From a virus: 64,000 nt of DNA. The stretch's first letter is position 1; every line of letters starts with the position of its first letter. The notes below the pieces were generated by a model. That model was not told the DNA's origin. It did no database searches and worked only from the letters and a program-made list of their open reading frames with translations. The DNA lies in the IMG/VR virus record IMGVR_UViG_3300043411_000921, positions 124,001 through 188,000 of that record. One strand, 5' to 3'. The translations under genes and the position numbers were made by a program. Below are positions 25,559 through 49,432 of this stretch, in pieces.

Positions 25559-26619
25559 GCAGCTTCCTCTATCTCAACAATCACACTTCCCTTTGTCCTT
25601 CCAGCAGCAGAAGCAAGAGCAGCAATCATTTCCTTCCCTTCTGAATAAAGGGAATCAGAGTTCAGTTGTTTCTTGAGTTGATAAGCCCAAAGATTTCCAA
25701 GAACACCTGAATCAATTGTTGCTGCTGGAACAAACCTTCTCAAGGTTTCTTCGTCCATTGGGGAAGACAGTCCCAAACTGGTGTAATCAATCATCTTCCT
25801 GAAAGCTTCGTGGATTTCTGGTGGAAGTTTTGAAGCTCTTACCGCCGTCATCAGTTCCATTGGACCGAAATCCCCAAGAAACTTTCTGTCGTAGAGATCT
25901 TGAAGTTTGAACATCTGAATCCAGATGTTGGCTGCTTCTTTGGAAAGAAAAACGTCTGATCTGAGCCAGCCAGGATGAACTGCTTTCATGACAAGTTGAT
26001 AGAGAAGTGGTCCATATCCCTTCTCAGCAACAGAAGCTTTCACAAGAAAAAGTCCTGGAGTTGATTCCGACTCTCTGTATCCGATCATTCCAGCCAAAGC
26101 TTCGCTGGGAATTGTTCCGTCTTCTGGATTCAGGACTGCTTTATCAGAGAACACGAGTGTGATTGATTTTCCTTTGAGTGATCCTCTTGGAATAGCAACA
26201 ACCTTTTCTTTGGAAGTATCCGTCAGAGATTTTGGTCCTTCAAAAAGGATGTCGGAGAGAGATGGATTTTTGAGGAAGAGCCTCTGGCCCTTTATTACGC
26301 CCTTGTCCTTGCACCAACCCCCTCTGACCTCAACAACATTTTTCACAGCCCGCATAAAGCTCCTAGAGGCCGTATCATTTGCCTTGAGGTGCATAACCTC
26401 AACAACCCGATCATCCTCATCAAACCCAATGCAGTCCAAGTCAAAAGGAACGTTCTTCATCCAAAAAGATTGAGGTCTTACCTTTGAGTTTTGGAACAAC
26501 AGCCCGAATCCATCTGGGGGAGGCGTTGTCGAACCCATGAAACCCTTCTTTTTCTGCTCATTTGTGGTGAGTGGCTCAAGGGTTAGTGGAACATAACCAA
26601 GAAAGGCAGGGAAGGGCAT
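25528..26619 (-). CDS. DUF192-domain protein with acetyltransferase-like C-terminal part
   Basis: A 363-residue protein. Residues 25-110 match DUF192: GFMGSTTPPPDGFGLLF, SFWMKNVPFDLDCIGF and a VVEV strand. The region with LFLVKASVAEKGYGPLLYQL resembles the acetyl-CoA-binding part of GNAT folds. I chose ATG 26619 with GGAAATAAG in front; a GTG at 26649 is also in frame. DUF192 proteins have no clear role. The start is only 14 bases from the divergent gene at 26634. Confidence 0.65.
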   Translation of the reverse strand: MPFPAFLGYVPLTLEPLTTNEQKKKGFMGSTTPPPDGFGLLFQNSKVRPQSFWMKNVPFDLDCIGFDEDDRVVEVMHLKANDTASRSFMRAVKNVVEVRGGWCKDKGVIKGQRLFLKNPSLSDILFEGPKSLTDTSKEKVVAIPRGSLKGKSITLVFSDKAVLNPEDGTIPSEALAGMIGYRESESTPGLFLVKASVAEKGYGPLLYQLVMKAVHPGWLRSDVFLSKEAANIWIQMFKLQDLYDRKFLGDFGPMELMTAVRASKLPPEIHEAFRKMIDYTSLGLSSPMDEETLRRFVPAATIDSGVLGNLWAYQLKKQLNSDSLYSEGKEMIAALASAAGRTKGSVIVEIEEAAYRLFLERFG

Positions 26620-26633
26620 CTTATTTCCAGAAT

Positions 26634-26987
26634 ATGTATCCCCAAGCACTCAAGATGTTTTTCCAACGGTTTTCTAAGCCAAATCCTCAACCAAGCTCTT
26701 CCAAACTGGCTCCGTTGAAAACAAGACTGCTCGAACTCAAGGCTGGAGAGTGTGTGAGATTCATCTTTGCAGAAGAGATGGTTTCCCAACTTCTTGCTGC
26801 CAACAGTCCCAGATTTGACAAGGGAAGCCTTGAAAGAGGAACGTTTCTTGCAGTGGTGAAGAGTGTTGGAACAACAAGGATTGGAATTGTTGTTGTTGAG
26901 GTAGTTTGTGTTTCTGGAGGGAGAGTGAAGGAGACTGTTGTAATGGAAACAGACTTGTGTGGGATGGAAGTGATTGGTAAGCCGTGA
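26634..26987 (+). CDS. Hypothetical protein
   Basis: About 117 residues from ATG 26634, after AT-rich sequence shared with the divergent gene. A basic, Pro/Ser-rich N-terminus leads into a compact beta-rich domain (LLELKAGECVRFIFAEEM, then IGIVVVEVVCVSGGRVKE). The end overlaps the next gene through GTGA. No family recognised. Confidence 0.65.
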   Translation: MYPQALKMFFQRFSKPNPQPSSSKLAPLKTRLLELKAGECVRFIFAEEMVSQLLAANSPRFDKGSLERGTFLAVVKSVGTTRIGIVVVEVVCVSGGRVKETVVMETDLCGMEVIGKP

Positions 26988-36670: not shown

Positions 36671-36904
36671 TTATCGCCCAGAAAAGGCGTTTTGAACCGT
36701 TATGCCCCTGCTTCTCAAATCCTCATCCGAGTTAATCAAATCCTCTAGCTTTTCATCCAGGTTCACAAAACCCACATTGGCCTTCTTCAAGATTTCTTTG
36801 ACGAAGAATGTTTTACCTGCCCCCAGTGGTCCTTGAAGCAACAAGATTTTGGGTTTGGTATTGCTTGAACTCTCGAACAGAAGGCGTGCTAAACTGGTAT
36901 TCAC
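36671..36904 (-). CDS. N-terminal P-loop part of the split kinase
   Basis: Encodes ILLLQGPLGAGKT, a Walker A motif, then a helix and NLDEKLEDLINSD, where zeta-type kinases carry a substrate Asp. It ends at TAA (36671-36673) after AFSGR. GTG 36904 is taken as start; an in-frame TTG at 36928 is possible and would overlap the dnaJ start. Alone it is too short to be a complete kinase; with the downstream part the total of about 260 residues fits the family. Confidence 0.6.
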   Translation of the reverse strand: MNTSLARLLFESSSNTKPKILLLQGPLGAGKTFFVKEILKKANVGFVNLDEKLEDLINSDEDLRSRGITVQNAFSGR

Positions 36905-36914
36905 CAAGTTAGAT

Positions 36915-37814
36915 ATGAAAAAACACAACCACCTTTATTCCATCCTGGGTGTAGAACCATCTGCAACCCAAGAACAAATCAAAACCGCTTACAGAGCAAA
37001 AGCTCTCAAGACACATCCTGATCGCAACCAAAACAATCCCAAGGCAGAAGAGGAATTCAAGGAAATCACTTCGGCCTATGAAACTCTCTCCAACCCAGAG
37101 AAGAGAACCGAATATGATTTGTTGCAAAATCCACCTGTTCATCCGTTTCCAAACACTGATGAGTTTTTCTCTTACAGGTGGTCAACGCAACAGGCTCGCA
37201 ATCGCTCAGAAAGGGTCCATGCGGGCGACGTAAGGATTGGTATGGGTGAGACCCTAACAGAACAAATCCGTGACGTAGAAATGGCGATTAGAGCCTCCTG
37301 CACCAAATGCCTCGGTCTTGGGATGAGAGGCATGGAAGATTTCTGCTCCAACTGCGAGGGAAGAGGTTGGAATTTTACCAATAGAAGCTTCCCTGTGAAA
37401 ATTCCCGCTGGTGTTTTTGACGGTTATACCGTTTCAACAAAGGTTCCAGGTGTTGGAGAACTTCAAACCAAGGTGTTGCTGGACATCCCAGAAAACATCA
37501 AACTTGGGCCAACGGGAAAAGTTGTGATGTCCCTGGATATTCCTTATCATCTTGCAGTGCTCGGTGGCCCATTGAAGTTGGACTTGTTTGATGGATCCAG
37601 TGTAACTGTGAAAGTTCCACCATTGAAGAAGCCAAAACAGATGTTGAAGTTGGCTGGGAAGGGGTTGGTGGTCCAGCCAGGAGGGAAGAGTCGAGGGGAT
37701 TTGTTTTTGAGTTTTGGGATTGAGTACCCACCAACGAACTTGTCTGACGAGTACAAGACAACCGTTGAGAAGCTTGCCACATTGTACTCACAAGAACAGG
37801 AAGGTAACAAATGA
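36915..37814 (+). CDS. DnaJ-like co-chaperone
   Basis: A 299-residue Hsp40. The J domain (residues 5-70) has the Hsp70-activating HPD in KTHPDRNQ. It then has a single zinc hairpin pair, CTKCLG and CSNCEG, half of the usual four repeats. The C-terminal substrate-binding region follows (VKIPAGVFDGYTV and DLFLSFGIEYP). It likely recruits the host DnaK to phage proteins. ATG 36915. The promoter is unclear. The next gene overlaps by ATGA. Confidence 0.9.
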   Translation: MKKHNHLYSILGVEPSATQEQIKTAYRAKALKTHPDRNQNNPKAEEEFKEITSAYETLSNPEKRTEYDLLQNPPVHPFPNTDEFFSYRWSTQQARNRSERVHAGDVRIGMGETLTEQIRDVEMAIRASCTKCLGLGMRGMEDFCSNCEGRGWNFTNRSFPVKIPAGVFDGYTVSTKVPGVGELQTKVLLDIPENIKLGPTGKVVMSLDIPYHLAVLGGPLKLDLFDGSSVTVKVPPLKKPKQMLKLAGKGLVVQPGGKSRGDLFLSFGIEYPPTNLSDEYKTTVEKLATLYSQEQEGNK

Positions 37815-38062
37815 AACAGACATACAAACTCAGTTATAGATTCATCGCTCAATTGGCAAAACTGGTTCAACTCAGCATGTTGACTGGTGAGCCTCTCAAG
37901 GAAAACATGCTGCAAATGCGTGTTGAGGTTGGTGGAGAAGATGGAAATGAGATTGTTCTGACTCCAGAATACGAGGAGTATTTCGAGAACTGTCTTGAAA
38001 CTCTGCTCCAGCAAGCTGATGCAATCCAAGAGAATATGCGAAACACTCCCGCCGAAGCCTGA
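37811..38062 (+). CDS. Hypothetical small protein after dnaJ
   Basis: An 83-residue protein coupled to dnaJ by ATGA: an N-terminal helix (YRFIAQLAKLVQLSMLTG), a short acidic beta segment and a C-terminal helix. No family recognised. It converges on the small membrane protein gene. Confidence 0.65.
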   Translation: MKQTYKLSYRFIAQLAKLVQLSMLTGEPLKENMLQMRVEVGGEDGNEIVLTPEYEEYFENCLETLLQQADAIQENMRNTPAEA

Positions 38063-38063
38063 T

Positions 38064-38270
38064 CTATTTCGTTCGTTTCATCACAAGCCCAAAAATCAGG
38101 GCTGCAAATCCAAACAAAGAAAAACACAGGAACTCACCGTTACTGATCTTTCCAAAATAGTGAAGGAACATGACAGTGATCAAAATGACAATGCCAAAAA
38201 AACCAGTTAGGAGAATAATTGCGTTCTCCTGACGGTCTTCTGGGGCGGTATTATTGTCGTTGTTATTCAT
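38064..38270 (-). CDS. Small membrane protein with two transmembrane helices
   Basis: A 68-residue protein with hydrophobic segments around AIILLTGFFGIVILITVMF and LCFSLFGFAALIFGLVM, short polar N-terminus and basic tail. The last gene of the 38-42 kb minus-strand operon; its ATG overlaps the preceding stop. Possibly inserted in the inner membrane. Function unknown. Confidence 0.65.
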   Translation of the reverse strand: MNNNDNNTAPEDRQENAIILLTGFFGIVILITVMFLHYFGKISNGEFLCFSLFGFAALIFGLVMKRTK

Positions 38271-38505
38271 CGACTGTCTCTCCTGGAAATATCAGTTCTT
38301 TAATCCCAGAGGTGAACCACAAGCCAAAAATACGAGTTGTGATCCTATCTTCACACAGCAACTCGCATTCGATGCAAGTTTTTCCGCCAGGAAGATGAAT
38401 GGTTCTCGAAGAAAGAACCAACATGTAACTGGATTCGAGATAGGGCGACTCGTACAATAACAAAGTGCCTGCTGGATATAAGTCGCTTGTTTTACTCATA
38501 ATCAT
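38263..38505 (-). CDS. Small PG-turn family protein (array member 11)
   Basis: About 80 residues: LYPAGTLLLYES, the hydrophobic strand SSYMLVLSS, IECELLCED and an acidic end GETVDE. It shares the order PAGTLL, strand, strand, acidic tail with the ten genes upstream. ATG choices at 38505 and 38499. Its start overlaps the previous gene by 14 bases. Confidence 0.65.
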   Translation of the reverse strand: MIMSKTSDLYPAGTLLLYESPYLESSYMLVLSSRTIHLPGGKTCIECELLCEDRITTRIFGLWFTSGIKELIFPGETVDE

Positions 38506-38746
38506 TTGGGTTTACTTCCCTCAAACCGAGGGCAACCCAACCGTCCCCTTTTGCATTTTCAACATTTCCATCTGGAGACAAGATGTCGTACTGAGTAAGG
38601 GATTCTCCATTTTGGAAATTAAACACTTTTGAAGAAAGGATTAGATAGAAACCTCTTGGGAACACATGCTCGCTGTATTTCAAGGCCCAGTCCGTCAACT
38701 CCAGCAAAGTTCCAGGTGAATACAGCTTGTTTGGATCAGTCATCAT
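38492..38746 (-). CDS. Small PG-turn family protein (array member 10)
   Basis: 84 residues from ATG 38746: LYSPGTLLELTD, GFYLILSSKVF, QYDILSPDGNVE and an acidic end NPNDYE. This is the clearest example of the family pattern: a PGTLL opening, a GFYLILSS strand and a DG turn. A longer frame upstream lies inside the neighbouring gene. Confidence 0.7.
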   Translation of the reverse strand: MMTDPNKLYSPGTLLELTDWALKYSEHVFPRGFYLILSSKVFNFQNGESLTQYDILSPDGNVENAKGDGWVALGLREVNPNDYE

Positions 38747-38990
38747 AATCCGTTGTTTCCACTTTCTCAAAAATTTCAAACATGCCTACCACGTCCCACA
38801 CCATTTCCTTTCCCGTTTTGGCAAAAAGCAAGGTGACTTGCTCAAAAGTTGGATGGTGTGCAACTACCACACAGTAATCTCCAAGTCCTTCATCTTCCCA
38901 ACTGCTTTCTTCGACATCTTTGACACGCAAGAGGGTTCCGATGGGAAATTCTCGAAACGTTTGTGCCCACCATTTGTCAGCTTTTTTCAT
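38736..38990 (-). CDS. Small PG-turn family protein (array member 9)
   Basis: 84 residues from ATG 38990 in a cagtgATGA overlap: FPIGTLLRVKD, GDYCVVVAHH, VTLLFAKTGKEMVWDV and acidic end ETTDYDD. Confidence 0.7.
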   Translation of the reverse strand: MKKADKWWAQTFREFPIGTLLRVKDVEESSWEDEGLGDYCVVVAHHPTFEQVTLLFAKTGKEMVWDVVGMFEIFEKVETTDYDD

Positions 38991-39241
38991 CACTGTTCAA
39001 CGTCTCCATCTTCCAACTCGACAACCGCCATATGTTTTACTGGTGAACCATCCCCGTATGTCAGGCTCCAAGTTTGGACTTCCCCACACTTGTCCAAAGC
39101 AAGGATAGTTTTGTGCTTTCCTTGCGGTGGTAAAACCATTACGACGAGAAGAAATCCTTTTCTGAGAGAGTATGGATGAGAGTAATCCAGCAACATCCCA
39201 GCGATTAAATCTTCATCAGATCCTATTGGTCTTGTTTTCAT
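38990..39241 (-). CDS. Small PG-turn family protein (array member 8)
   Basis: 83 residues, ATG 39241: MKTRPIGSDEDLIAGMLLDY, GFLLVVMVLPP, ILALDKCGEVQTWSL and acidic end LEDGDVEQ. The N-terminus is nearly the same as member 2 (MKTRPIKSFDDLHPGMLL), direct evidence of duplication. Confidence 0.7.
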   Translation of the reverse strand: MKTRPIGSDEDLIAGMLLDYSHPYSLRKGFLLVVMVLPPQGKHKTILALDKCGEVQTWSLTYGDGSPVKHMAVVELEDGDVEQ

Positions 39242-39501
39242 TCTTCATCCGTTGTCTCGACTACAACAAAACCTTCGTACTGCATTAGTTTCCAATTCCA
39301 TTCATGCAATTCCCCCGAAGGTTCCAAAAAAGTAAACAATTCAAAATTTCCTGACGAATACCTCCCGTCCGGTTTGCGATCTACTAGCAAGTAAAACCCC
39401 AAATCCCAAGCAACAAGACAGGTGGTGCTGGCCTCCTCACCTCCACGATACAGGAGAATCCCCAGCCTGGGTTCAACTTTTGATAACGGCTTGGTTTTCA
39501 T
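39238..39501 (-). CDS. Small PG-turn family protein (array member 7)
   Basis: 87 residues: MKTKPLSKVEPRLGILLYRG, DLGFYLLVDRKP, FTFLEPSGELHEWNW and acidic end VETTDEE. It overlaps the next gene by ATGA. Confidence 0.7.
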   Translation of the reverse strand: MKTKPLSKVEPRLGILLYRGGEEASTTCLVAWDLGFYLLVDRKPDGRYSSGNFELFTFLEPSGELHEWNWKLMQYEGFVVVETTDEE

Positions 39502-39504
39502 TCT

Positions 39505-39777
39505 TTATTGTTCTTCTGTGTCTTCTGGGAATGCCACCAACAGAGTTTCTTTGATCAACATTTGTACGTTCCAAAAATAGACTTTGCAATCATCTTCCAA
39601 GACACAAATCTCTCCAAGTCTAAGATCTTCACCTACCCCAACAACGAGGTAGAATTGCATTTGCCCATCTTCTCTCGGTGTGTAATGGTAACTCGTAGGA
39701 TTAGCCATCAATAGCACCCCCGAAAAGATTTCTTCCTCTTTGGGAGGCAGGAATGGTAAAGATGTTGTTGGTGTCAT
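39505..39777 (-). CDS. Small PG-turn family protein (array member 6)
   Basis: 90 residues from ATG 39777 overlapping the previous stop: IFSGVLLMANP, MQFYLVVGVG, ICVLEDDCKVYFWNV and acidic end FPEDTEEQ. The in-frame codons upstream of 39777 lie in the previous gene. Confidence 0.7.
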   Translation of the reverse strand: MTPTTSLPFLPPKEEEIFSGVLLMANPTSYHYTPREDGQMQFYLVVGVGEDLRLGEICVLEDDCKVYFWNVQMLIKETLLVAFPEDTEEQ

Positions 39778-40100
39778 GTTTGTGATGCTGGGGTGTAGGC
39801 ATATCGCCAAGTGTTGTTGCTGCAAATCAACCTGTTACCATTCGGATCTAAGAACTCTTGAAATCTAGCAGAAGTCGGCGCAATGACTTCTCTTAAAAAA
39901 ACCAAGTGGTATGGGAGTGCTCCACAAAGATAGCCATAAAGATAGCTTTCCCCGTAGAGGATATCAAAAAACTCTCGCTCGGTTAGTTTAGAATAGTCGG
40001 CTGGGAGTTTAGAATTATACCATACTCTAAAGACGAAATGTGTTTCCTCTTTATAGGCATTGAGTTCAAGGAGTTCCCCTGGGCTTAGGCGTTGTACCAT
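39774..40100 (-). CDS. Small PG-turn family protein (array member 5)
   Basis: 108 residues from ATG 40100 (GTG 40115 possible): LSPGELLELNAYKEE, a Tyr-rich insertion (DILYGESYLYGYLCG), then LVFLREVI and EFLDPNGNRL. It lacks the acidic tail, the only clear exception in the array. Confidence 0.65.
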   Translation of the reverse strand: MVQRLSPGELLELNAYKEETHFVFRVWYNSKLPADYSKLTEREFFDILYGESYLYGYLCGALPYHLVFLREVIAPTSARFQEFLDPNGNRLICSNNTWRYAYTPASQT

Positions 40101-40108
40101 GCCTGTTT

Positions 40109-40390
40109 TTACCACGAATCCTCAAGGACTTCAATGAAAACAGGGGGATGTCCTGGTCCGGGCGTTTCTTCTCCGCCCATAGGAACCAAACAATCCCAGT
40201 CGAACCACCTTTCTTGACCTTCTGAGTTTACCACCTCACCAGGAAAGTTGGGCTTGATGTAGCCGAGGAATTTGAGATATGCGCCGGTTTTTTTGGCAAC
40301 AATTCCAACCATCTCAGTTCGATCAAAATACCCAGCGGGGAAAAATACAACACGAACCAAAGCTCCTAGTTTGAACTTGTCCGGGTTCAT
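40109..40390 (-). CDS. Small PG-turn family protein (array member 4)
   Basis: 93 residues, ATG 40390: FKLGALVRVVFFPAG, EMVGIVAKKTGAYLKFLGY, EVVNSEGQERWFDWDCL and the end FIEVLEDSW. The order of strands agrees with its neighbours although the opening is LGALV. Confidence 0.65.
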   Translation of the reverse strand: MNPDKFKLGALVRVVFFPAGYFDRTEMVGIVAKKTGAYLKFLGYIKPNFPGEVVNSEGQERWFDWDCLVPMGGEETPGPGHPPVFIEVLEDSW

Positions 40391-40611
40391 GGATCTTCTT
40401 GCGGCTCTGCGATCTGAACGATTCGATAATCAGAGTCAAGGTATCTTTCCGTACATGCCATTGGGAGATGAGTCGGACTAATCGTGTCAATCATTTTTGA
40501 CACTTCTCCATTCCTAAACTTATGCCAACCCAGACAAACACGAAAGATGTCGGGGCTGTCAATATTTTGAAGTAGGGTTCCTGGAGGGTATTTTGCGGGA
40601 ACTGGTTTCAT
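40387..40611 (-). CDS. Small PG-turn family protein (array member 3)
   Basis: 74 residues, ATG 40611: KYPPGTLLQNIDSPDIFRV, IDTISPTHLP, YLDSDYRIVQIAEPQEDP. ATGA overlap with both neighbours. Confidence 0.7.
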   Translation of the reverse strand: MKPVPAKYPPGTLLQNIDSPDIFRVCLGWHKFRNGEVSKMIDTISPTHLPMACTERYLDSDYRIVQIAEPQEDP

Positions 40612-40832
40612 TCCACAGCCTCTTCATCATCATCGCAAATAATTTCTTGCTGATAAAGTGCGCTAAATCGAGTTTCCATGATCTCTCCTTTGTGAACCCA
40701 CAAAGACCAATATACTCTTCGTTCTTTGTCCACTCTGATAATCGTCTCGATTTCATCTGTTGGATCTTCTACATCCACCAGCAACATACCCGGATGGAGG
40801 TCGTCAAAAGATTTGATTGGCCTTGTTTTCAT
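40608..40832 (-). CDS. Small PG-turn family protein (array member 2)
   Basis: 74 residues, ATG 40832: MKTRPIKSFDDLHPGMLLVD, YWSLWVHKGEIME and acidic end CDDDEEAVE. N-terminus shared with member 8. Confidence 0.7.
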   Translation of the reverse strand: MKTRPIKSFDDLHPGMLLVDVEDPTDEIETIIRVDKERRVYWSLWVHKGEIMETRFSALYQQEIICDDDEEAVE

Positions 40833-41029
40833 TGTGAATCTTCATCCTCTTCCATTGGAACGATCTCATACCAATCTTCCACATAGTTTTTACTTACCAC
40901 AATGACATTGAACCCATTGGAGTCTGCTGCGAGAAGGCGAACGGTGTTTTTTAGTGGATCTTCGTCAAGATATACACGGAACCGCGAAGGAATGTTGTAC
41001 TTGTTTTTGAGCAGCGTTCCTGGTTTCAT
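40829..41029 (-). CDS. Small PG-turn family protein (array member 1)
   Basis: 66 residues from ATG 41029, which overlaps the stop of the zinc-finger gene (TAATGA). MKPGTLLKNKYNIPSRFRVY, VRLLAADSNGFNVIVV, EDWYEIV and acidic end MEEDEDSQ. This is the shortest and simplest form of the family. Much longer in-frame codons upstream lie in the zinc-finger gene and are rejected. Confidence 0.7.
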   Translation of the reverse strand: MKPGTLLKNKYNIPSRFRVYLDEDPLKNTVRLLAADSNGFNVIVVSKNYVEDWYEIVPMEEDEDSQ

Positions 41030-42093
41030 TATCGGCGTGGGAAGGTGTGACGGCCACGATTGTAGGAATAAGCGGGGAAAACCGGCATGTTGACCATTGA
41101 AGTTTGAATCTCTTCGGTGAAACAAAAGCCAGCAGCTTTGATGCAATCGAGCACAGATGCCTTTTCCGTGGCACGGAACACCCAGGTGCGGGTAGAGTCC
41201 ACATAAGACCGATTGGACGCCTGGATATTCTTCTTGAGGGCTTCCACGAGCTTTGGAGTCTTGCCAGCAACCCAGGGAACGTCCAGGGTGATAACCGTGG
41301 GCCAGCAAACCACCCTTGCACCATCTCGGGCTGCTGCAATAGAGTTTTGCTGAGGATTTACAGCGATCCACTCCTCACACATCTTGATGATGTTGGGAAC
41401 ATCCCCCTCAAAGCACGGCCAATACTCCATCACAACTTCAACAAAAGCCTTGTGAGACTTCGCTGGACAAGTGAAAGTCCGACCGGAGAGCTTGGGAAAA
41501 ACAACTCCGGGAATCTTGCGCATCGCATTCCACCCAGCCTTGTTCTTGCTTCCAGTCAAACTGATAAGGCCATTTTCAAACTTCAGGGTTGCTTCACCCG
41601 TGCTGCTCTTTCCAGCAAGCACGCCAGCAAGGCCAGGATAACCCAGAGACTTGACAACTTGAATCAAGCAAGTCTTGTTTTGGGTGCTGATTCCAACGAA
41701 GGAGAGCATGAAGTCTACGATCTTGACAATGGGACGATAATCCTCACCAGCAAGATAAAACCCACTGTCGCCCTCGTTCTTTTCCTGGAGCTTCTCGTTC
41801 TTCTGCATGAGGAGTTCGAGGGTTGCAGCCCAGATGGGTTGAATGGCGAGGGGAAGTCCGTCAGGAACCACAGACATTCCATAGAGTGTGGCTGCTGAGA
41901 AATTTGCGGGAACAGTGCGAGCAAAAAGCGCGGTGTCCTTCTTCGCGCAGATGGGGCCGATGCCACGCTCCCAGGAAGCGGGATCGGTCAATGCGGCGAA
42001 GCATCGAGAACAATGACGGACATCATTGCAACTCCGAGTGATGCTCGGAAACATGTTGAGGATATCTTGAAAGCTGGTCGTGGCGTTCTTCAT
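41029..42093 (-). CDS. Zinc-finger protein leading the small-gene operon
   Basis: A 354-residue protein. The N-terminus has a treble-clef-like zinc finger (CSRCFAALTDPASWERG then GPICAKK, DUF6011-type). The C-terminal half has two segments of the type xxIPGxxFxxxxRxFxxP (MRKIPGVVFPKLSGRTFTCP and NRSYVDSTRTWVFRATEK), which recall the short N-terminal repeats of HARP-type annealing helicases. ATG 42093 is six bases after the -10 of a strong promoter, so the operon mRNA should be leaderless. Its role is unknown; nucleic acid binding is inferred. Confidence 0.65.
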   Translation of the reverse strand: MKNATTSFQDILNMFPSITRSCNDVRHCSRCFAALTDPASWERGIGPICAKKDTALFARTVPANFSAATLYGMSVVPDGLPLAIQPIWAATLELLMQKNEKLQEKNEGDSGFYLAGEDYRPIVKIVDFMLSFVGISTQNKTCLIQVVKSLGYPGLAGVLAGKSSTGEATLKFENGLISLTGSKNKAGWNAMRKIPGVVFPKLSGRTFTCPAKSHKAFVEVVMEYWPCFEGDVPNIIKMCEEWIAVNPQQNSIAAARDGARVVCWPTVITLDVPWVAGKTPKLVEALKKNIQASNRSYVDSTRTWVFRATEKASVLDCIKAAGFCFTEEIQTSMVNMPVFPAYSYNRGRHTFPRR

Positions 42094-42134: not shown

Positions 42135-43322
42135 TTATCTGGCCTGTGCGATTTTTTCTGGGAGGGCTACATTCCAGAGATTTGCCTTGGCTGTCCTTGA
42201 CTTGGTAAACCCCAAAGACTCCAACTTCTTTGCCATTAGCTGAGGCTTATAGTTCGAAACATGAACCAAGCATTTCTCTTCCTTCAAAAACAACATCCTC
42301 GCTTGGATAATCTCCTGAAGGGAAGACTTGGGCTCTTTATCTGTCCAGGGTCGAAGGGAAGAAAAAAACTCCCGGTCCCCATCCTTCAAAGCTCGAACCT
42401 CTTCCAACCCAATCTTCAAATTAGGCTTGTTCTTCTTCAACCAAGAGAAGTAAATCTCATTGACCTTCTCAAAAGATGTATTGAATGCCGGATACTTCGT
42501 TACCGAGTCAATAACTTGTGTAGCTTCATCAAAAAATTCACAATAGTTTTCAAAATGTTTTAGGTAAGCGGAGCAAAGTTTTTCTAGTTGAGCACGTTCT
42601 GCCCCTTTGGCTCTGTCAGAGGAAAGAAGTCTGTGGAGAACAATGTTTCTAACGCCAACTGGGACGGGTTCGGTTTTCATTTTTTCTCTGACATGCTCGA
42701 TTGTTCCAGTTGACCAGTCAGACAGAGAGGACTTAGCCGCCATCTTTGATTTGGTCGTTGTTGTTTTTTGTGTCTTGGTTGATTTCCTTGATTTTAGTGC
42801 GTTGAGGAATTTTTCTGGTAGGTCTTGAATTTCATTCGGACAGACTTCGCCATAAGTGCCACGAGTATGTTTGCTTGGTGGAATAACAACATAACCGTCT
42901 TGGCCTCGTGTATCTACCTTGTCCGCCAAATGGGATGCAGTGTTTTTTGTCGGGGTCGATGTCCAAAACCAAAAATGCCACCCACCAGATCCAGTCCGAT
43001 AGTGAAAAGTCGAAGAAAGTTCCTTTATGATTGGGTGATCTGCCGCATCAACATCAACAACAATAAGATATTTCCCAGTTTTTTCAGATTTTCGTCCTGT
43101 TGCGAGGCCAAAGTTCATTTTGTGACTGAGAGAAAACCACTCTTCAACCTTTTCTGGTTTATTGCTGGCAATGATTTTCCAATTGTAACGAAAGAGTGGG
43201 TGTTTTCCAGGAGAAGCGCAGTTTTGTTCGCCACACGAACAAGTGTTGTTAAGCCGAATCGAATAAAGTGGAAGTATGTGAAATTTGTTTTCCAGAATGA
43301 TTTGTTTAATTGATGATGGCAT
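42135..43322 (-). CDS. Primase-polymerase (PrimPol)
   Basis: A 395-residue protein with an N-terminal bifunctional primase/polymerase domain: CSCGEQNCASPGKHP at residues 28-42, catalytic VVDVDAAD (Asp90 and Asp92), RTGSGGWHFWF with His116, and DTRGQDGYVVIPPSKH. It makes primers and may extend them; it likely serves the DnaB-type helicase. The C-terminal half is helical and basic. ATG 43322 lies inside a perfect 21-bp inverted repeat that would hide the start in an mRNA hairpin. Confidence 0.9.
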   Translation of the reverse strand: MPSSIKQIILENKFHILPLYSIRLNNTCSCGEQNCASPGKHPLFRYNWKIIASNKPEKVEEWFSLSHKMNFGLATGRKSEKTGKYLIVVDVDAADHPIIKELSSTFHYRTGSGGWHFWFWTSTPTKNTASHLADKVDTRGQDGYVVIPPSKHTRGTYGEVCPNEIQDLPEKFLNALKSRKSTKTQKTTTTKSKMAAKSSLSDWSTGTIEHVREKMKTEPVPVGVRNIVLHRLLSSDRAKGAERAQLEKLCSAYLKHFENYCEFFDEATQVIDSVTKYPAFNTSFEKVNEIYFSWLKKNKPNLKIGLEEVRALKDGDREFFSSLRPWTDKEPKSSLQEIIQARMLFLKEEKCLVHVSNYKPQLMAKKLESLGFTKSRTAKANLWNVALPEKIAQAR

Positions 43323-43360
43323 TTCAACCTCAAAGTATCAGGTTGAAATGCCATCATCAA
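43310..43360. promoter_or_regulatory. Perfect 21-bp inverted repeat over the PrimPol start
   Basis: Arms 43310-43330 and 43340-43360 are perfect complements around a 9-base loop. On the minus-strand mRNA the PrimPol AUG lies in the 3' arm, and the 5' arm overlaps the stop of the upstream gene. No T-run follows. It also marks the edge of the GC-rich cassette. Confidence 0.75.
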
Positions 43361-43575
43361 GAGACTCTTTCGACCACCGCGCCCGCAGGGATCGCCCCCG
43401 CGTCCGTGGTGGAGCCGCGAGTGCCGCCGCTCGTGCGGTAGTAGTAGGTCGTCGAGGGCGCGGGAGCGCCGACGCGCGGGGCGAAGGCCCCGCGGAGGGG
43501 CGCAGGGATGGGCTTATACAGCCCAGGGGCGATCGATGGCGAGGGCGGGGCGAGGCCTGCGGTATAGGTGCTCAT
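43357..43575 (-). CDS. Hypothetical protein of GC-rich cassette
   Basis: A 72-residue protein rich in Pro, Ala, Gly and Thr (MSTYTAGLAPPSPSIAPGLY, later PAPSTTYYYRTSGGTRGS). GC-rich codons throughout. It ends inside the inverted repeat. Ten bases after the upstream gene, so part of one operon. It may be a fibre tip or chaperone-like piece; unknown. Confidence 0.6.
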   Translation of the reverse strand: MSTYTAGLAPPSPSIAPGLYKPIPAPLRGAFAPRVGAPAPSTTYYYRTSGGTRGSTTDAGAIPAGAVVERVS

Positions 43576-44660
43576 GGCGGCACCTCACGAGAGCGTCGGG
43601 GTCGAGGAGTCCCACCGCAGCCACAGGCCCGCGGCATAAATCCAGTACTCGGTCGTGCCGTCGAGCGTCTGGCCATTGGCCCGGCCCGCCACGGTGGCCC
43701 ACCGGATGCCGCGCGCAAATCCGACCCACCCCGTCGTGGTGGACGGCGCGCCCGCACACATCACGGGGACCGGCAGCGGCACCTCGTACCCGCTGCTAGG
43801 CAGCGCGCCGCCCTGCTCGCCTTCGGGCGGCGCCAGCCGCCCGTAGGTGCCGAAGAGCGACGCGAAGGTGACCCGCTGGTTGCTGCCAGCCCCGACGAAT
43901 CGCTTGTAGATCAGGGCGTAACCCGTCTGGAGGGCCACCCCGGCTGCCGCGTAGACCGTCAAACCCGTGGCGTTGTAGTACCCGACCCACAGGGGTGGGT
44001 CCGTGTCGCTCGGGTCGGGCGAGTCGAGGGGTACGTCGGCAAGGAGAGTGCGGACATTGCCGCCACCGCTCGGGAGGCACATGAGTCGCCAGCCGAAGTC
44101 GTCGATGTCGTCTGCCGAGATGAAGAGCCGCCCGGGCGTTGCCGTGAATGCCGACGCTGCCGAGAAAAGCTCCGTCGCGTCCGTCGCCGTAGGCAGCACC
44201 GTAGCGGTGCCACCCGTGACGAACCCCGCCGCGCTGCGAGAGATGGTCCACGCGGCATCGCTCGCGCCGCGCTGGAAGAGCCACTCGCGGCTTGAATCCG
44301 GCGAACGCACGGTGAACCACGCGGAGGTGTTGCCGAGGTTGCCCGCGCCGCTACCGCCGCTGCCGTAGGGGTTGGCGCTGAGCGGTGGGTTGGCGCTGAG
44401 CGGTGCGCCGGTGCGGTCGGTGTAGGTGGTCGCGTCCGACCATCGCGTGATGACCCACCCCGCGGAGAGCAGGGTGTCGATGAGCGCGTCGACGGCGACA
44501 GCGCCCGACGCGGGCGAGGATACGTGTGTGATAGTGGCCATGTGTCAGCTCCCGATCATCGAGGCAGCGGCGCAGATAAGCCAACGGTATGAGCCATCGG
44601 TGGGCAAGAGTTGCGCCGCCGAGATGAGGGTCTGCTGGTCGGCTGCCGTTGGGGCTGGTG
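43361..44660. other. GC-rich inserted cassette
   Basis: Base composition changes abruptly to very GC-rich, with GC-rich third positions, for about 1.3 kb between the PrimPol gene and the tail fibre gene, both of which are AT-leaning. It holds two complete genes and most of a third, all in the orientation of the fibre gene. The left edge coincides with the inverted repeat. It is most likely a fibre-related module from a phage of a GC-rich host. Confidence 0.7.
43585..44541 (-). CDS. Fibre-associated protein of GC-rich cassette
   Basis: A 318-residue protein with no cysteine clusters or catalytic motif. It is Ser/Thr/Gly/Ala-rich and predicted beta (MATITHVSSPASGAVAVDAL, ITRWSDATTYTDR, then a LSANPPLSANPYG repeat coded by an 18-base tandem duplication). 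The end WIYAAGLWLRWD is aromatic. Position directly after the tail fibre gene suggests a receptor-binding or fibre-capping protein. ATG 44541 is four bases after the small gene upstream. Confidence 0.65.
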   Translation of the reverse strand: MATITHVSSPASGAVAVDALIDTLLSAGWVITRWSDATTYTDRTGAPLSANPPLSANPYGSGGSGAGNLGNTSAWFTVRSPDSSREWLFQRGASDAAWTISRSAAGFVTGGTATVLPTATDATELFSAASAFTATPGRLFISADDIDDFGWRLMCLPSGGGNVRTLLADVPLDSPDPSDTDPPLWVGYYNATGLTVYAAAGVALQTGYALIYKRFVGAGSNQRVTFASLFGTYGRLAPPEGEQGGALPSSGYEVPLPVPVMCAGAPSTTTGWVGFARGIRWATVAGRANGQTLDGTTEYWIYAAGLWLRWDSSTPTLS

Positions 44661-44685
44661 TAGTGAGATTTTCCAAGTATGCCAT
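44545..44685 (-). CDS. Small gene at the right edge of the GC-rich cassette
   Basis: A 46-residue protein: MAYLENLTTPAPTAADQQTL, then YRWLICAAASMIGS. ATG 44685 lies in AT-rich sequence, but the codons quickly become GC-rich, so the gene spans the composition boundary. It is four bases from the next gene, which suggests coupling. There is no clear Shine-Dalgarno. Confidence 0.5.
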   Translation of the reverse strand: MAYLENLTTPAPTAADQQTLISAAQLLPTDGSYRWLICAAASMIGS

Positions 44686-44708
44686 TGTGTTAAAATCTAA
44701 CTACAGTT

Positions 44709-47111
44709 TCACCCAAAAAACACGGCTGAAAATAGCGCATAGTCGGAAATGCCTCCTCCGCTCTTGTTGACCCTCAATTCCAAAACTCTTGAAGAACCAG
44801 TGGCAACAAAAGAAGCTGTTTTGTGCGTTGGGGTTGTCTCAGTCCATGACAAAGAAGAAAGAGATGATGAGTTAACAAGATCATACAATTCCACACTTCC
44901 AGTGACTCCGGCTACGGAAGCAAAACCAATGCCTTCGAGTGTGTAGGATGGAGAATTTAGATCTGTAAAAAGAGCGTAACCCGCGATGGTGCTTGCAGAA
45001 AGGGTTGTTGTGACAACCCCAGCCAGAATTGGGATTTTACTTGAGGCAGAGAGTTCCCACTGACCAATTGTGTTGTAGTTTGCTGTAATGCCGGAACTTC
45101 CTGTCAAGAAAGGATTTCCGTTTGTAGTAGTGTTCAAAGAACCCGTTATGCCACCAAAGACTTCAAATGAACCTGTTACTTGAACGGAGCCGGAAGCAAC
45201 TCTAAAAACATCGTGCCGATTAAAACTACTATCCCCGTCCCCGACAACAAAAAGAGAGGAAGCATCTTGAATGTTGAATTTTCCGAATGCGGCTTGTGTC
45301 GTTGTGGGGTCAAGATTCCCAGCGGTTTCTCCTTCTGCGATTGTTCCAAGCCCCGCAGCGAAGCTTCCACTGCCATTCGCAATCGTTTGCCAACCTGTGG
45401 TGTGGGAGGCTGGGCCGTTCGTTAAAGTGTAGTAGCCTTCGGCGTGGGAATAGCTGCCGTTGGTTGATGAACCAACCCCTTCTGCGTGGGAATGCTCTGC
45501 GCCAGTGGTTGTTCCATTTCCCTCAGCGTGAGAAAAATTACCATTTGCTGTTGAAAAAAAGCCTTCAGCGTGCCCACCGAGAGCGTTAGATTTTGCGAAA
45601 TAACCTTCTGCGTGTGCAGCGTATGCTGCTGCTGTTGTAAACACACCTTCCGCATGGGAAAAGAACCCAGATGCTTGTGTGCTTGAACCTTCGGCGTGAG
45701 TGGCTTGGCTTGATGCAATAGTGTCTTGGCCTTCGGCGTGAGAGTTGTCACCGGATGCAATGTTTCTTATTCCCTGGGTTACGCTTCCAGTGATTTCGGC
45801 CCCCAAAGAGGCACTTAGTTTTGCAATTTCGATAGAGCTGGTCGTGTAAATGATTGTGCTGTTTATTTCAGACCAGAGGCTTGTTCCACCAGAAGAGCCA
45901 GAAATTTCCCACTGGCCGTTTGTGTTGTAGACTGTTGTGATACCCGGCCCACCAATCAAAAACGGACTACCATCGACGGTACCACTCAAAGAACCAGTGA
46001 TTTTTGAAGAGATGAACGACCCAGTTACTTCAACCGAGGTGTCATTAACTCTGAAAATATCAGATCTGAGAAAATCATCATCATCTGTTCCGTTTCCAAC
46101 AACGAACAATGAGAAATCGTTGTTGCGAAGATTATACTTTCCAACTACATTTTGTCCAGAGCCAGATGCGATTGTTCGGATACCGGAAGCGTGTGAAAAG
46201 TCGCCTGGGGTGTCGGTGTAGGAACCTTCGGCATGTGACCAGTTTCCAATAGCGTTTGTCTCAAATCCTTCAGCGTGCGATCCCACCCCAAACGCTTCTG
46301 CGCCTTCCCCTTCTGCGTGGTTATAATCGGCATGTGCTCTTGTCATTCTCCCTTCTGCGTGGGAATAATCGCCAGAAGCAATTGTCATTGTGCCTTCTGC
46401 ATGGGAACCAAGACCTGAAGAAGTCGCCATTCTCCCTTCTGCGTGGGAATTGATTCCACTGGCGAGTGTACCATCTCCCTCCGAGTGACCACCAGCACCT
46501 GATGCCGTTGTTGCAAAACCTTCTGCGTGCGAATGATTTCCAGAAGCAGTAGAATTGTACCCTTCCGAATGAGAATAGTCGCCCGAAGCGACTCCATATT
46601 GGCCTTCCGAGTGACTACACAAACCCGAAGCCACTGTTTCTTCTCCTGATGCGACAGAAGATCCGGTGGCATAGCTGCCAATTCCAGCGATCACACTAGA
46701 TCCTGTGACAACGAGACTGATTTCCCCAACAAATTCATTTCGGATTTGAACAGATCCAGTGGAGTAGGTACTACCTGAGATGTCTGAGAACCAGATTTGG
46801 GCACTGCCCCCACTTGCGCCAGAACCATCAACAGACAGGTTCCCAGAGACGTGTAGATCCCCTCCAAAAACCGCAATAGTAGGCGTGCTACCTCCCTTGC
46901 CCCCAACCGATCCAGAGACGTAGAAAAAGGCGTCAGAGCCGATTGGCGAGGTGTCAAAAATAGCAGGGTTGATATTCCCCTGGTTGGCTGGAGTTCCTTG
47001 AGCACTCAAAGGATAAACAAGAAGGCATTCGGCGGAACCCGCATTGGCTCCGCTGACAATCAGCTTGTTTACTTGAATTTGATCGGAACGAAAATCTGGT
47101 GAGTTTGGCAT
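44709..47111 (-). CDS. Trimeric tail fibre with YadA-head-like repeats
   Basis: An 800-residue fibre. After an N-terminal attachment region (residues 1-140) come two blocks of about 14-residue repeats with the signature SHAEG...ASG (residues 145-322 and 447-592), as in the left-handed beta-roll heads of YadA-type adhesins. Each block is followed by the same module: FRV, VTGSF, ITGSL, GNPFL or GSPFL, YNT-GQWE-S. The fibre is thus an internal duplication. The C-terminal 150 residues are probably the tip. ATG 47111 lies inside a 12-bp inverted repeat. It binds the host surface. Confidence 0.85.
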   Translation of the reverse strand: MPNSPDFRSDQIQVNKLIVSGANAGSAECLLVYPLSAQGTPANQGNINPAIFDTSPIGSDAFFYVSGSVGGKGGSTPTIAVFGGDLHVSGNLSVDGSGASGGSAQIWFSDISGSTYSTGSVQIRNEFVGEISLVVTGSSVIAGIGSYATGSSVASGEETVASGLCSHSEGQYGVASGDYSHSEGYNSTASGNHSHAEGFATTASGAGGHSEGDGTLASGINSHAEGRMATSSGLGSHAEGTMTIASGDYSHAEGRMTRAHADYNHAEGEGAEAFGVGSHAEGFETNAIGNWSHAEGSYTDTPGDFSHASGIRTIASGSGQNVVGKYNLRNNDFSLFVVGNGTDDDDFLRSDIFRVNDTSVEVTGSFISSKITGSLSGTVDGSPFLIGGPGITTVYNTNGQWEISGSSGGTSLWSEINSTIIYTTSSIEIAKLSASLGAEITGSVTQGIRNIASGDNSHAEGQDTIASSQATHAEGSSTQASGFFSHAEGVFTTAAAYAAHAEGYFAKSNALGGHAEGFFSTANGNFSHAEGNGTTTGAEHSHAEGVGSSTNGSYSHAEGYYTLTNGPASHTTGWQTIANGSGSFAAGLGTIAEGETAGNLDPTTTQAAFGKFNIQDASSLFVVGDGDSSFNRHDVFRVASGSVQVTGSFEVFGGITGSLNTTTNGNPFLTGSSGITANYNTIGQWELSASSKIPILAGVVTTTLSASTIAGYALFTDLNSPSYTLEGIGFASVAGVTGSVELYDLVNSSSLSSLSWTETTPTHKTASFVATGSSRVLELRVNKSGGGISDYALFSAVFFG
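45336..45773 (-). repeat. Second SHAEG repeat block in the fibre gene
   Basis: About ten 42-base coding repeats encoding HAEG-containing 14-mers (residues 447-592). Sequence is degenerate at DNA level, so this is protein-level repetition. Confidence 0.8.
46146..46679 (-). repeat. First SHAEG repeat block in the fibre gene
   Basis: About twelve 42-base coding repeats encoding SHSEG/SHAEG 14-mers (residues 145-322). Confidence 0.8.
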
Positions 47112-47136: not shown

Positions 47137-47153
47137 ACAAGGCCAGAAAGGTT

Positions 47154-48020
47154 TTAGAGGATTTCGGAGGAGATCGTTGCGAGCGACCAGCCTTTCGTGG
47201 ATTTGCGGCGCCCTTTTAGAACCGCGCACAATTTTGTTGGCGCAAGACCGTACAAACGACAAAAAGCTGCCAAGCATTGAATTTCTGTTATCACAACCCC
47301 ATCGGGGCCGATCAGTTGTAATCCCAAATAGGTTTTTGAATTATGATGTTCTGTTCCCATCTTCTTACCCAAATGGGCCAAACGATTTTTTTGCTTGGAT
47401 TCTTCGGTGTGATGTTTGTTGAAATTAGGATGCTTCGAACCTTTCAACACATTTTTTGGACCAAGCTTTTTCTTTTCCGTGCCAACCAAAGTCCACCCTT
47501 TTGTGCTGGGGGCTTGTCGATTTAGCAACTTCCACAAACACTTCGGATTCAAATGGTGTTCTTCTGCAAAACTTGTAACGGAATCGACACTTGTATACAG
47601 AATTAAATCCGGTGAGAGTAGTTGAATATTGCTGTATTGTTTTCCCACCTTCTTGGATCCGTGCGGGGAAGAAGCATCTTTTCTGAGATTGTAACACTTG
47701 TTCTTACCAAAAGAAGAATCAATGTAGCGTTGTTCTACCAACAAACGATCTTCCTTGGTACCACCAACGACTTCCAGAACCTCAAACACGAATACCTCTT
47801 CCCCGCATTTGTCAAAATCGGCTTGCAGATAACGGTTAGAATGCTTCCCTCTTCTTAGGGAAGCGGTGTGCTGATTCCAGCGGACCTTGAAGCATTTTGC
47901 CGAACCAACATAGACTCTTTCGTTGAGTTTGTTTCTGAGTCTATACACACCGCCTTCATTCGATTTCCCTCCGAACTTGTATTCCACAGGACGTAACCTT
48001 TCATGGAATACATAGTTCAA
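47154..48020 (-). CDS. GIY-YIG homing endonuclease
   Basis: About 288 residues with a GIY-YIG nuclease domain at the start (GGVYRLRNKL, VYVGSAKCFKVRWNQH), then DNA-binding repeats: two NUMOD/IENR-like units (SVTSFAEEHHLNPKCLWKLL ending STKGWTL, and CLAAFCRLYGLAPTKLCAVL ending STKGWSL) and a NUMOD3-like HTEESKQKN region. It starts at TTG 48020 behind AACAGGGG; a GTG at 47987 is possible. The last nine codons (LATISSEIL) repeat the end of PhoH, showing that it inserted next to phoH and carries a copy of its 3' end. Confidence 0.88.
   Translation of the reverse strand: MNYVFHERLRPVEYKFGGKSNEGGVYRLRNKLNERVYVGSAKCFKVRWNQHTASLRRGKHSNRYLQADFDKCGEEVFVFEVLEVVGGTKEDRLLVEQRYIDSSFGKNKCYNLRKDASSPHGSKKVGKQYSNIQLLSPDLILYTSVDSVTSFAEEHHLNPKCLWKLLNRQAPSTKGWTLVGTEKKKLGPKNVLKGSKHPNFNKHHTEESKQKNRLAHLGKKMGTEHHNSKTYLGLQLIGPDGVVITEIQCLAAFCRLYGLAPTKLCAVLKGRRKSTKGWSLATISSEIL
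47156..47184 (-). repeat. 29-bp direct repeat, copy at endonuclease 3' end
   Basis: Matches 48043-48071 with one mismatch and encodes ATISSEIL in frame at the C-terminus of both proteins. The stop codons differ (TAA here, TGA for phoH). Confidence 0.85.
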
Positions 48021-48040
48021 AAACCCCTGTTTTCCAGGCT

Positions 48041-49432
48041 TCAGAGGATTTCGGAGGAGATTGTTGCGAGCAAACTCCTTTCCCCGCGCAAAAATGTCAC
48101 ATGTCCGGCAATATCTTGATCTTTGAAGCGTTCAATAACAATTGAGAGACCATTGGAAACTGAGTCAACGTAGGTGTTGTCGATCTGCTCCAAGTCTCCA
48201 GTCAAAACAATCTTGGTGTTTTCTCCAACACGAGTCAATATTGTTTTCATTTCGTGCAGGTTCGTGTTTTGAGCTTCGTCAATAATCACGAAAGCGTTGG
48301 CGATGGAACGTCCACGAATGAAGGTCATTGCTTGAACTTCAATGATTCCTTCGTCGAAGTAACTCTGAAGAACTTGCTCGTCATGTCGTGGTTGTTTTTT
48401 CTTTCCACCTTCTTGCATTGAATTGCCGATGAGAAAGCGAAGGTTGTCTTTGATTGGAGCAAGCCACGGTTCCAGTTTTTCATTCAAATCTCCTGGAAGG
48501 AACCCAACGTCTTTTCCGAGGGGCATGATTGGACGGCAGATGAGCAGACTTCTGTACCGTTTTGTGTTCAAGACTTGTTCAAGTCCAGCGTTGATTGCGC
48601 TAAGTGTTTTTCCCACACCGGCTTTTCCAGCAAGAGTGACAAGTTTCACGGCTGGGTCAAAGAGAAGGTCGGCAGCAAATTCTTGTTCTTTGTTTCTTGG
48701 TTGAAGTTTTCCAGGAGAAGGGGTCAATTGTCGCAATGGTTTGTTTTTGGACACGAACCTTGCAACTGCGGACTGTTGTCCGTCTTTGATAACAACAAAC
48801 TGGTTAGGATGAAGGTCTTGTTGGAGGTCTTCGGGAAGTGTGTAATCATTTTTGTTGTCATGGAAGTCATCAACCACAGTTTCATCGCGGCTGGAAACAT
48901 CAATCGTTTTTACGCCCGAGTAAAGACTGTTCACGCTTGTTGCGACATTGAACTTACGGTAATCCTCACAGGGAATTCCGAGGGCCTGAGCTTTCAATCG
49001 AAGGATTGTATCTCTTGTGACAAGGAATGCGGTTTCACCAGCAGCTTTTGCCATATCCAAGTAGTTTTGACAGAAGTGAACAATGGTGTTGTCACCGCTC
49101 TTCTTTGTCTCCAATTCAGATGGCAAACCGATTGCTGTTTTCTCATCGGCACACAAATCGGAGAGTGCAAGGATACGGAGGGTTCCCAACTTCTTTCCGA
49201 GTGGAATTCCAGCTTTGAAATCTTTGTGGACCTTGGTCAAGTCAGCAAGTTTTCTGACAACTTCTCTGGCGTTTCTGCCGACTTCATCTTGACGGTCTTT
49301 GTGTCTGTCAAGTTCCTCCAGCACAATGAGAGGAATCACCAAGTCATGCTCTTCGAAACCAAACAGGCTGTTGCTGTCAGTCAACAGAACGTTTGTGTCA
49401 AGAATGTAAGTCTTGCGGGCTTTTTTTGTCAT
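48041..49432 (-). CDS. phoH: PIN-PhoH fusion ATPase
   Basis: A 463-residue protein: PIN RNase-like domain at the N-terminus (YILDTNVLLTD, PLIVLEELDRHK, with conserved Asp residues) and PhoH ATPase domain with Walker A GKAGVGKT near residue 271 and Walker B-like VIIDEAQN. PhoH2-type proteins are RNA helicase/nucleases. The C-terminal LATISSEIL is shared with the neighbouring endonuclease. ATG 49432. Downstream on the same strand is the homing endonuclease, 20 bases away. Confidence 0.9.
   Translation of the reverse strand: MTKKARKTYILDTNVLLTDSNSLFGFEEHDLVIPLIVLEELDRHKDRQDEVGRNAREVVRKLADLTKVHKDFKAGIPLGKKLGTLRILALSDLCADEKTAIGLPSELETKKSGDNTIVHFCQNYLDMAKAAGETAFLVTRDTILRLKAQALGIPCEDYRKFNVATSVNSLYSGVKTIDVSSRDETVVDDFHDNKNDYTLPEDLQQDLHPNQFVVIKDGQQSAVARFVSKNKPLRQLTPSPGKLQPRNKEQEFAADLLFDPAVKLVTLAGKAGVGKTLSAINAGLEQVLNTKRYRSLLICRPIMPLGKDVGFLPGDLNEKLEPWLAPIKDNLRFLIGNSMQEGGKKKQPRHDEQVLQSYFDEGIIEVQAMTFIRGRSIANAFVIIDEAQNTNLHEMKTILTRVGENTKIVLTGDLEQIDNTYVDSVSNGLSIVIERFKDQDIAGHVTFLRGERSLLATISSEIL
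48043..48071 (-). repeat. 29-bp direct repeat, copy at phoH 3' end
   Basis: The partner of 47156-47184. It holds the last codons of phoH. Confidence 0.85.

What the first reader, a model, noticed from the sequence alone, without database searches (positions are those of the whole stretch)
38263..41029. Tandem array of eleven diverged small genes in one operon
Eleven consecutive overlapping minus-strand genes of 66-108 codons share the order PGTLL or GMLL opening, a hydrophobic strand such as FYLILS, a D/E-x-G turn often with Trp, and (in most) an acidic tail. Members 2 and 8 start almost identically (MKTRPIxS..DL..GMLL). Serial duplication with strong divergence suggests an arms race, for example small acidic inhibitors of host defence, but that is speculation. 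I know of no described system with this layout.
Basis: partly seen in the sequence, partly recalled or inferred. Interest (0 to 1): 0.75.

Follow-up and report, generated by a model that had tools for sequence, protein, structure and literature searches.

The report
Tandem array of SH3-like phage genes
A large bacterial virus carries eleven short genes in a row that are old, heavily altered copies of one another; at least one of them, and probably most, folds into a small SH3-like barrel, and because a distant relative has its own different set at the same spot while five other relatives have none, the cluster is probably a fast-changing set of proteins that grip host proteins.

Summary
Window 38263-41029 (minus strand) contains eleven consecutive, mostly overlapping ORFs of 66-108 codons in a 241-kb IMG/VR phage record. 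All 11 carry G-x-L-[LV] near the start (about 1-4% expected). Leave-one-out profiles recognise 8 of 11; g05 and g06 are borderline and g04 is not recognised. No Pfam, PHROGs, NCBIfam or PADLOC family matches. AlphaFold2 gives an SH3-like barrel for g10 (pLDDT 82, pTM 0.70); the sequence outlier g04 shows the same strand order at lower confidence (pLDDT 73). Six related contigs contain the syntenic site, between Prim-Pol/DUF6011 genes and a convergent DnaJ module. Five have no array, only one membrane-protein-like gene or short ORFs. One (L051) has its own array of six or seven genes whose profile matches this one (hhalign E 1e-5), without one-to-one orthologs: birth-and-death evolution of a site-specific family. 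The acidic tails are specific to this phage (L051 members have pI 5.6-9.3), so 'acidic inhibitors' is not the family's rule. The best function guess is a diversifying set of protein-binding host-takeover/counter-defence modules (about 0.45); this is inferred, not shown.

The parts
40829..41029 (-). g01, 66 aa; start overlaps the stop of the DUF6011 gene (TAATG)
   Evidence: leave-one-out 0/2000 shuffles
40608..40832 (-). g02, 74 aa; closest paralog of g08
40387..40611 (-). g03, 74 aa; paralog of g01 and g10
40109..40390 (-). g04, 93 aa; sequence outlier; AF2 strand order matches an SH3-like barrel (pLDDT 73)
   Evidence: not recognised by leave-one-out; 14/2000 with the L051 profile
39774..40100 (-). 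g05, 108 aa; borderline member, probably with an insertion
39505..39777 (-). g06, 90 aa; borderline member
39238..39501 (-). g07, 87 aa
38990..39241 (-). g08, 83 aa; paralog of g02
38736..38990 (-). g09, 84 aa
38492..38743 (-). g10, 83 aa; AF2 model SH3-like barrel (pLDDT 81.8, pTM 0.70)
38263..38505 (-). g11, 80 aa; adjacent duplicate of g10
38064..38270 (-). small protein with two hydrophobic stretches (likely 2-TM), last gene of the run; several array-less relatives carry a membrane-protein-like gene at this position
41029..42093 (-). conserved upstream gene, PF19474 DUF6011 N-terminal region; one border of the site in all relatives
42135..43322 (-). Prim-Pol (PF09250) primase gene upstream on the same strand
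37811..38062 (+). convergent conserved small gene; other border of the site in all relatives
36849..37814 (+). DnaJ-like co-chaperone gene, conserved flank (protein read from 36909 carries the DnaJ domain)

Best explanation
A tandem, birth-and-death array of paralogous small proteins with an SH3-like beta-barrel fold, part of one same-strand gene run with Prim-Pol and DUF6011 genes at a fixed genomic site. Shown: paralogy of most members, fold prediction for one member (and a compatible one for the outlier), a second diverged array at the same site in another phage, absence in five relatives. Inferred: the barrels are single-domain binding modules whose loops and tails diversify so that each copy grips a different host (or rival-element) protein, i.e. 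a host-takeover/counter-defence repertoire, with copies gained and lost by unequal recombination at the repeated gene junctions.
For: Array is real and homologous. SH3-like fold: strand order b1-RT-like loop-b2-b3-b4-short helix-b5, pLDDT 81.8; nearest solved folds include the MSL3 chromo-barrel, EF-P domain I, Tudor, PWWP and B. subtilis YorP; viral library hits are short uncharacterised phage proteins. Same strand order in the outlier g04. Separate array in L051 at the same site, profile-profile E 9.5e-6, strongest paralog pairs inside each array (h4-h6, g02-g08, g01-g03, g10-g11), so duplication or replacement went on after the lineages split. Site without array in L041, L042, L043, L045 and L050. 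Gene-junction direct repeats. Precedents from papers: phage Phi3T Nip has two predicted SH3-like domains and binds and inhibits the SpbK NADase (PMC11984713); T4 MotB, with a predicted KOW (SH3-like) domain, is an early protein that changes host H-NS binding and has a duplicated neighbour motB.1 (PMC7827196); T6 amplifies counter-defence loci segmentally (PMC13096335).
Against: No member matches any curated family, including PADLOC. Foldseek E-values are 0.05 or worse in PDB and 0.005 or worse in the viral library; TM-scores about 0.4-0.6. Only two of eleven members were modelled, and PDB matches of g04 are mixed, led by trypsin-barrel fragments. The genes sit in a replication gene run, and timing of expression is unknown. 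No selection test was possible because there are no orthologs.
Confidence: 0.45

Rival explanations
1. Nucleic-acid- or translation/transcription-directed SH3-like (KOW/Tudor-type) regulators, working like T4 MotB: several variants modulate host chromatin or the transcription/translation machinery.
For: Best solved folds are chromo-barrel, domain I of EF-P, and Tudor; viral fold hits include a protein named as a Shigella phage Sf25 transcriptional regulator and a T4 13.8-kDa protein of the motB-dexA region; MotB binds DNA and alters H-NS binding (PMC7827196).
Against: All eleven window members are acidic (pI 4.1-5.6), which argues against direct DNA/RNA binding; fold matches to nucleic-acid binders say little in so small a fold.
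Confidence: 0.18
2. Accessory subunits of the phage replication module: a set of small adaptors that bind the Prim-Pol/DUF6011 gene products encoded just upstream.
For: Same strand, overlapping TAATG junction with the DUF6011 gene, conserved position next to it.
Against: Five relatives keep Prim-Pol and DUF6011 without any array, so the array is not needed for their function; eleven diverged copies are more than a complex would need (inference).
Confidence: 0.12
3. Mostly non-adaptive tandem duplication: copies arise by recombination and drift; few have a function.
For: Great divergence, junction repeats, presence/absence in relatives.
Against: All eleven frames are open with ATG starts, coding-frame preference is retained and the G-x-L-[LV] core is kept in 11/11, and a second phage keeps its own intact set. 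A phage genome would be expected to lose useless genes quickly (inference).
Confidence: 0.15
4. Lysis or cell-wall-binding SH3 proteins, as proposed for the standalone SH3 protein of T1-like phages.
For: Standalone SH3 genes occur beside lysis genes in Drexlerviridae (PMC13164509); a small 2-TM-type protein ends the run.
Against: No endolysin or spanin gene was seen among the immediate neighbours, which are replication and DnaJ genes; by eye no signal-like N-terminal stretch in any member; no Pfam SH3 match.
Confidence: 0.04
5. Minor virion or tail-associated structural components.
For: A tail-fibre/adhesin-like gene lies a few kb upstream (44709-47111).
Against: That gene is separated from the array by replication genes, and the array is absent in relatives with the same flanks.
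Confidence: 0.06

Closest known systems
T4 MotB / MotB.1 and the motB-dexA region
   Same: Small early proteins, MotB with a predicted KOW (SH3-like) N-terminal domain, host-directed; neighbouring genes related by duplication (PMC7827196); fold hits from this region in the viral library.
   Different: MotB has a second (OB-fold) domain and binds DNA; a pair of genes, not eleven; no sequence match to the array.
Phi3T Nip (SpbK NADase inhibitor)
   Same: Phage counter-defence protein predicted to hold SH3-like domains and shown to act by binding a host defence protein (PMC11984713).
   Different: 279 aa with two SH3-like domains plus an HU-like dimerisation domain; single gene; no sequence relation tested or claimed here.
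Standalone SH3 protein (DUF7244) of Drexlerviridae
   Same: Single-domain SH3-like small phage protein, patchily distributed (PMC13164509).
   Different: Single copy, beside the lysis cassette, has a Pfam family; array members match no Pfam family.
Arrays of short lineage-specific phage genes (anti-CRISPR-type arrays; short-gene blocks of crAss-like phages)
   Same: Consecutive short genes with no database relatives (PMC7886860).
   Different: Those arrays are described as short genes lacking detectable homologs; here the genes are paralogs of each other and a homologous set recurs at the same site.
SegB-driven segmental amplification in phage T6
   Same: Tandem gain of copies in a phage (PMC13096335); this phage also has a GIY-YIG endonuclease gene at 47154-48020.
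   Different: T6 amplification is recent and selected in the laboratory; here copies are about 15-30% identical and old; the endonuclease is about 6 kb away and no link was shown.

Membership tests
SH3-like small beta-barrel fold | b1-RT loop-b2-b3-b4-3/10 helix-b5 order in a 55-90 aa domain | tested here: met
   g10 model E13-16, E32-42, E48-55, E61-65, H69-73, E74-76 at pLDDT 81.8; nearest PDB folds are chromo-barrel, EF-P domain I and Tudor at modest TM. Met for g10 only; other members inferred from homology.
SH3-like small beta-barrel fold | same fold in the most divergent member (g04) | tested here: inconclusive
   Same strand order, pLDDT 73.2, pTM 0.67; PDB matches mixed.
One paralogous family (g01-g11) | each member recognised by a profile of the others | tested here: inconclusive
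   8/11 met, g05 and g06 borderline, g04 not met by the window profile; g04 14/2000 and g05 12/2000 with the separate L051 profile.
One paralogous family (window array and L051 array) | significant profile-profile similarity | tested here: met
   hhalign probability 82.7%, E 9.5e-6.
Any Pfam SH3-clan, KOW or other curated family | profile match above cut-off | tested here: not met
   no Pfam, PHROGs or NCBIfam match
Known defence proteins (PADLOC) | profile match | tested here: not met
   no match; this library holds defence, not counter-defence, proteins
Acidic DNA-mimic-type inhibitors | conserved strong acidity across the family | tested here: not met
   window pI 4.1-5.6, but L051 members pI 5.6-9.3
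Acidic DNA-mimic-type inhibitors | inhibition of a DNA-binding host protein | not testable with these tools
   needs biochemistry
T4 MotB | KOW domain followed by OB-fold domain | tested here: not met
   members are single domains of 66-108 aa
T4 MotB | DNA binding | not testable with these tools
   needs biochemistry

The most novel reading that the evidence does not exclude
A dedicated genomic site where a jumbo-phage lineage builds a private repertoire of SH3-fold binding proteins by tandem duplication and extreme divergence, each copy neutralising a different host defence or host factor: a phage 'binder library' locus not described before.
Probability: 0.3. Interest if true: 0.8.

Novelty: new variant of a known kind. 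Interest (0 to 1): 0.52.

Why it matters
Blocks of short orphan genes in large phages are usually unreadable one gene at a time. Here eleven such genes form one largely homologous family with a predicted fold, and a second array at the same site gives a comparative handle. If the copies bind different host proteins, the locus would be a ready set of small natural binders and a direct test of whether tandem duplication builds counter-defence repertoires in phages.

Tried and rejected
Acidic tails as a by-product of Shine-Dalgarno sequence embedded in overlapping gene ends: across 307 overlapping and 320 separated gene pairs from rough ORF calls the shift was small (0.00 vs 0.40, p 0.06) and the array is far more acidic than overlapping controls (mean -3.6, p 2e-5), so rejected as the main cause. 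Further members elsewhere in this record or in relatives outside the site: none; the profile is weak, so absence is not proof. Search in named phages by protein (P0010) and DNA: nothing useful. Search for relatives of P0008 in IMG/VR: none. Gene trees to decide between ancestral array with loss and separate gain: unresolved, with long branches for both array-bearing phages. Profile search of PDB sequences: none. Promoter/terminator scan: nothing clear above background that could define the operon. L057, L058 and L060, more distant Prim-Pol relatives: the site is not present. Two last scans for closer relatives of either array-bearing phage found none with a new array.
Full report
What the window is. 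The window is bases 124001-188000 of a 241,399-base IMG/VR virus record. It holds phage genes: a DnaB-type helicase about 77% identical to those of a group of environmental phage contigs, Prim-Pol, thymidylate synthase-like, ClpP-like, DnaJ-like and tail genes. No DNA relative of the region is in the named-phage collection.

The observation. Eleven minus-strand ORFs of 66, 74, 74, 93, 108, 90, 87, 83, 84, 83 and 80 aa follow each other from 41029 to 38263. Nine of the eleven starts overlap the preceding gene by 1-14 nt; g05 and g07 follow gaps of 8 and 3 nt. The first overlaps the stop codon of the upstream DUF6011 gene, and the last overlaps a small gene (38064-38270) for a protein with two hydrophobic stretches. 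The annotated frame scores best for codon usage in each gene, tied at two decimals for g07. Eleven of eleven have G-x-L-[LV] in the first 35 residues against 1-4% in controls.

Are they one family? Pairwise similarity is weak except for g02-g08, g01-g03 and g10-g11. I therefore held each member out, built a profile of the other ten and scored the held-out protein against 2000 shuffles of itself. Eight of eleven are clearly recognised, also above the best unrelated ORFs of the window; g05 and g06 are borderline; g04 fails. With the profile of the L051 array (below), which contains no window sequence, g01, g02 and g03 are recognised at 1-2 of 2000 shuffles, g05 and g04 at 12 and 14 of 2000. DNA repeats lie across gene junctions (g01/g02, g06/g07, g07/g08; ends of g07 and g09), as expected if duplication units included junctions. 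No further member was found in the record, and no Pfam, PHROGs, NCBIfam, PADLOC or PDB-sequence match.

Fold. AlphaFold2 of g10 with a 13-row alignment gives mean pLDDT 81.8 and pTM 0.70 with the strand order of an SH3-like barrel. Foldseek's nearest solved structures include the MSL3 chromo-barrel, domain I (KOW-type) of EF-P, Tudor and PWWP domains, and the B. subtilis protein YorP, at modest scores (E 0.05 or worse, TM about 0.4-0.6). The viral library returns many short uncharacterised phage proteins at probability near 1.0 but E 0.005 or worse, including a T4 protein from the motB-dexA region. The outlier g04 gives the same strand order at pLDDT 73.2 and pTM 0.67, but its PDB matches are mixed, led by trypsin-barrel fragments. 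I take SH3-like as well supported for the core family and likely for g04; nine members were not modelled.

The site in relatives. The flanking genes are conserved in order: Prim-Pol, DUF6011 gene, [site], a convergent small gene and a DnaJ-like gene. In L041, L042, L043 and L045 the site is about 490-620 bp and holds a gene for a protein with hydrophobic stretches and a Pro/Ala-rich tail; L050 is also array-less, with only short ORFs between the same borders. In L051 (IMGVR_UViG_3300032116_000284) the same site holds seven small genes, six of them (h2-h7) with PG- or G-x-hydrophobic openings such as PGTIL, PGQLV, PGMLL and PGTMV. The two arrays match as profiles (hhalign probability 82.7%, E 9.5e-6), and a search of 13 related records with the combined alignment rang only at the L051 site. 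The strongest pairs are inside each array (h4-h6 in L051), so there is no one-to-one orthology: copies were gained or replaced after the two lineages split. Gene trees do not decide whether the array is ancestral and lost, or gained twice.

Acidity. The window proteins are acidic (pI 4.1-5.6) with acidic tails in ten of eleven, but L051 members are not (pI 5.6-9.3). Conserved proteins of the window are mixed in charge, so acidity is a feature of this array, not a rule of the family. I tested whether embedded ribosome-binding sequence explains the tails; it does not to any large extent.

How it may work. Shown: a tandem family, an SH3-like fold prediction for one member, a site with array turnover. 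Inferred: single-domain barrels serve as binding modules, and divergence of loops and tails gives each copy its own target. Published precedents make a host-directed role reasonable: Nip of Phi3T, with predicted SH3-like domains, binds and inhibits the SpbK NADase (PMC11984713); T4 MotB, with a predicted KOW domain, is early and host-directed and has a duplicated neighbour (PMC7827196). Segmental amplification of counter-defence genes by a homing endonuclease is known in T6 (PMC13096335); this window has a GIY-YIG endonuclease gene, but about 6 kb away and with no shown link. Against: no family match, no expression data, no targets, and location in a replication run. I put host-takeover/counter-defence at 0.45.

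Novelty. I found no described phage system with a serial, homologous array of SH3-like small proteins; the literature search covered open-licence papers only. Tandem paralogs, short-gene blocks and SH3-like phage proteins are each known, so I call this a new variant of a known kind.

Noticed in passing
window 47154-48020 (minus), repeats 47149-47184 and 48036-48071: GIY-YIG/NUMOD endonuclease gene directly after phoH; a 36-nt stretch covering the last codons of phoH is repeated (92%) at the end of the endonuclease gene, so both proteins end in LATISSEIL, as if the insertion duplicated the phoH 3' end.
   Followed up: partly
window 43300-44700: A 70% GC island in a 46% GC window, covering a 318-aa gene (43585-44541) that has a 32%-identical counterpart in L043; looks like a recent foreign acquisition.
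   Followed up: partly
window 25528-26649; L044:3963-9095: The single DUF192-containing gene of the window corresponds in a 260-kb relative to a short 53%-identical gene followed by six tandem ORFs that all match the window gene at 26-32% identity: a second site of tandem gene expansion in this phage group.
   Followed up: partly
window 44709-47111: 800-aa protein with many SHAEG-type repeats, resembling head repeats of trimeric adhesins; pieces match several tail-like genes in relatives.
   Followed up: no
window 18605-19093 and 26607-26984 (plus): Two small proteins with openings like the array members (LPAGTLVRG, LKAGECVRF) far from the array; no profile match at E<=10 in the record, so only a resemblance by eye.
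   Followed up: partly
L041:6673-12177, L042:6744-12287, L043:7620-13093: Relatives carry an insert of about 5 kb, with a tail-fibre-like gene, between the DnaJ-like gene and the 35907 gene, where the window has under 1 kb.
   Followed up: no
L168:10571-10789: A lone small ORF with a VGDLVKV...IGLVVSI pattern, typical by eye of SH3-like phage proteins, next to a ClpP-like gene in a more distant phage.
   Followed up: no
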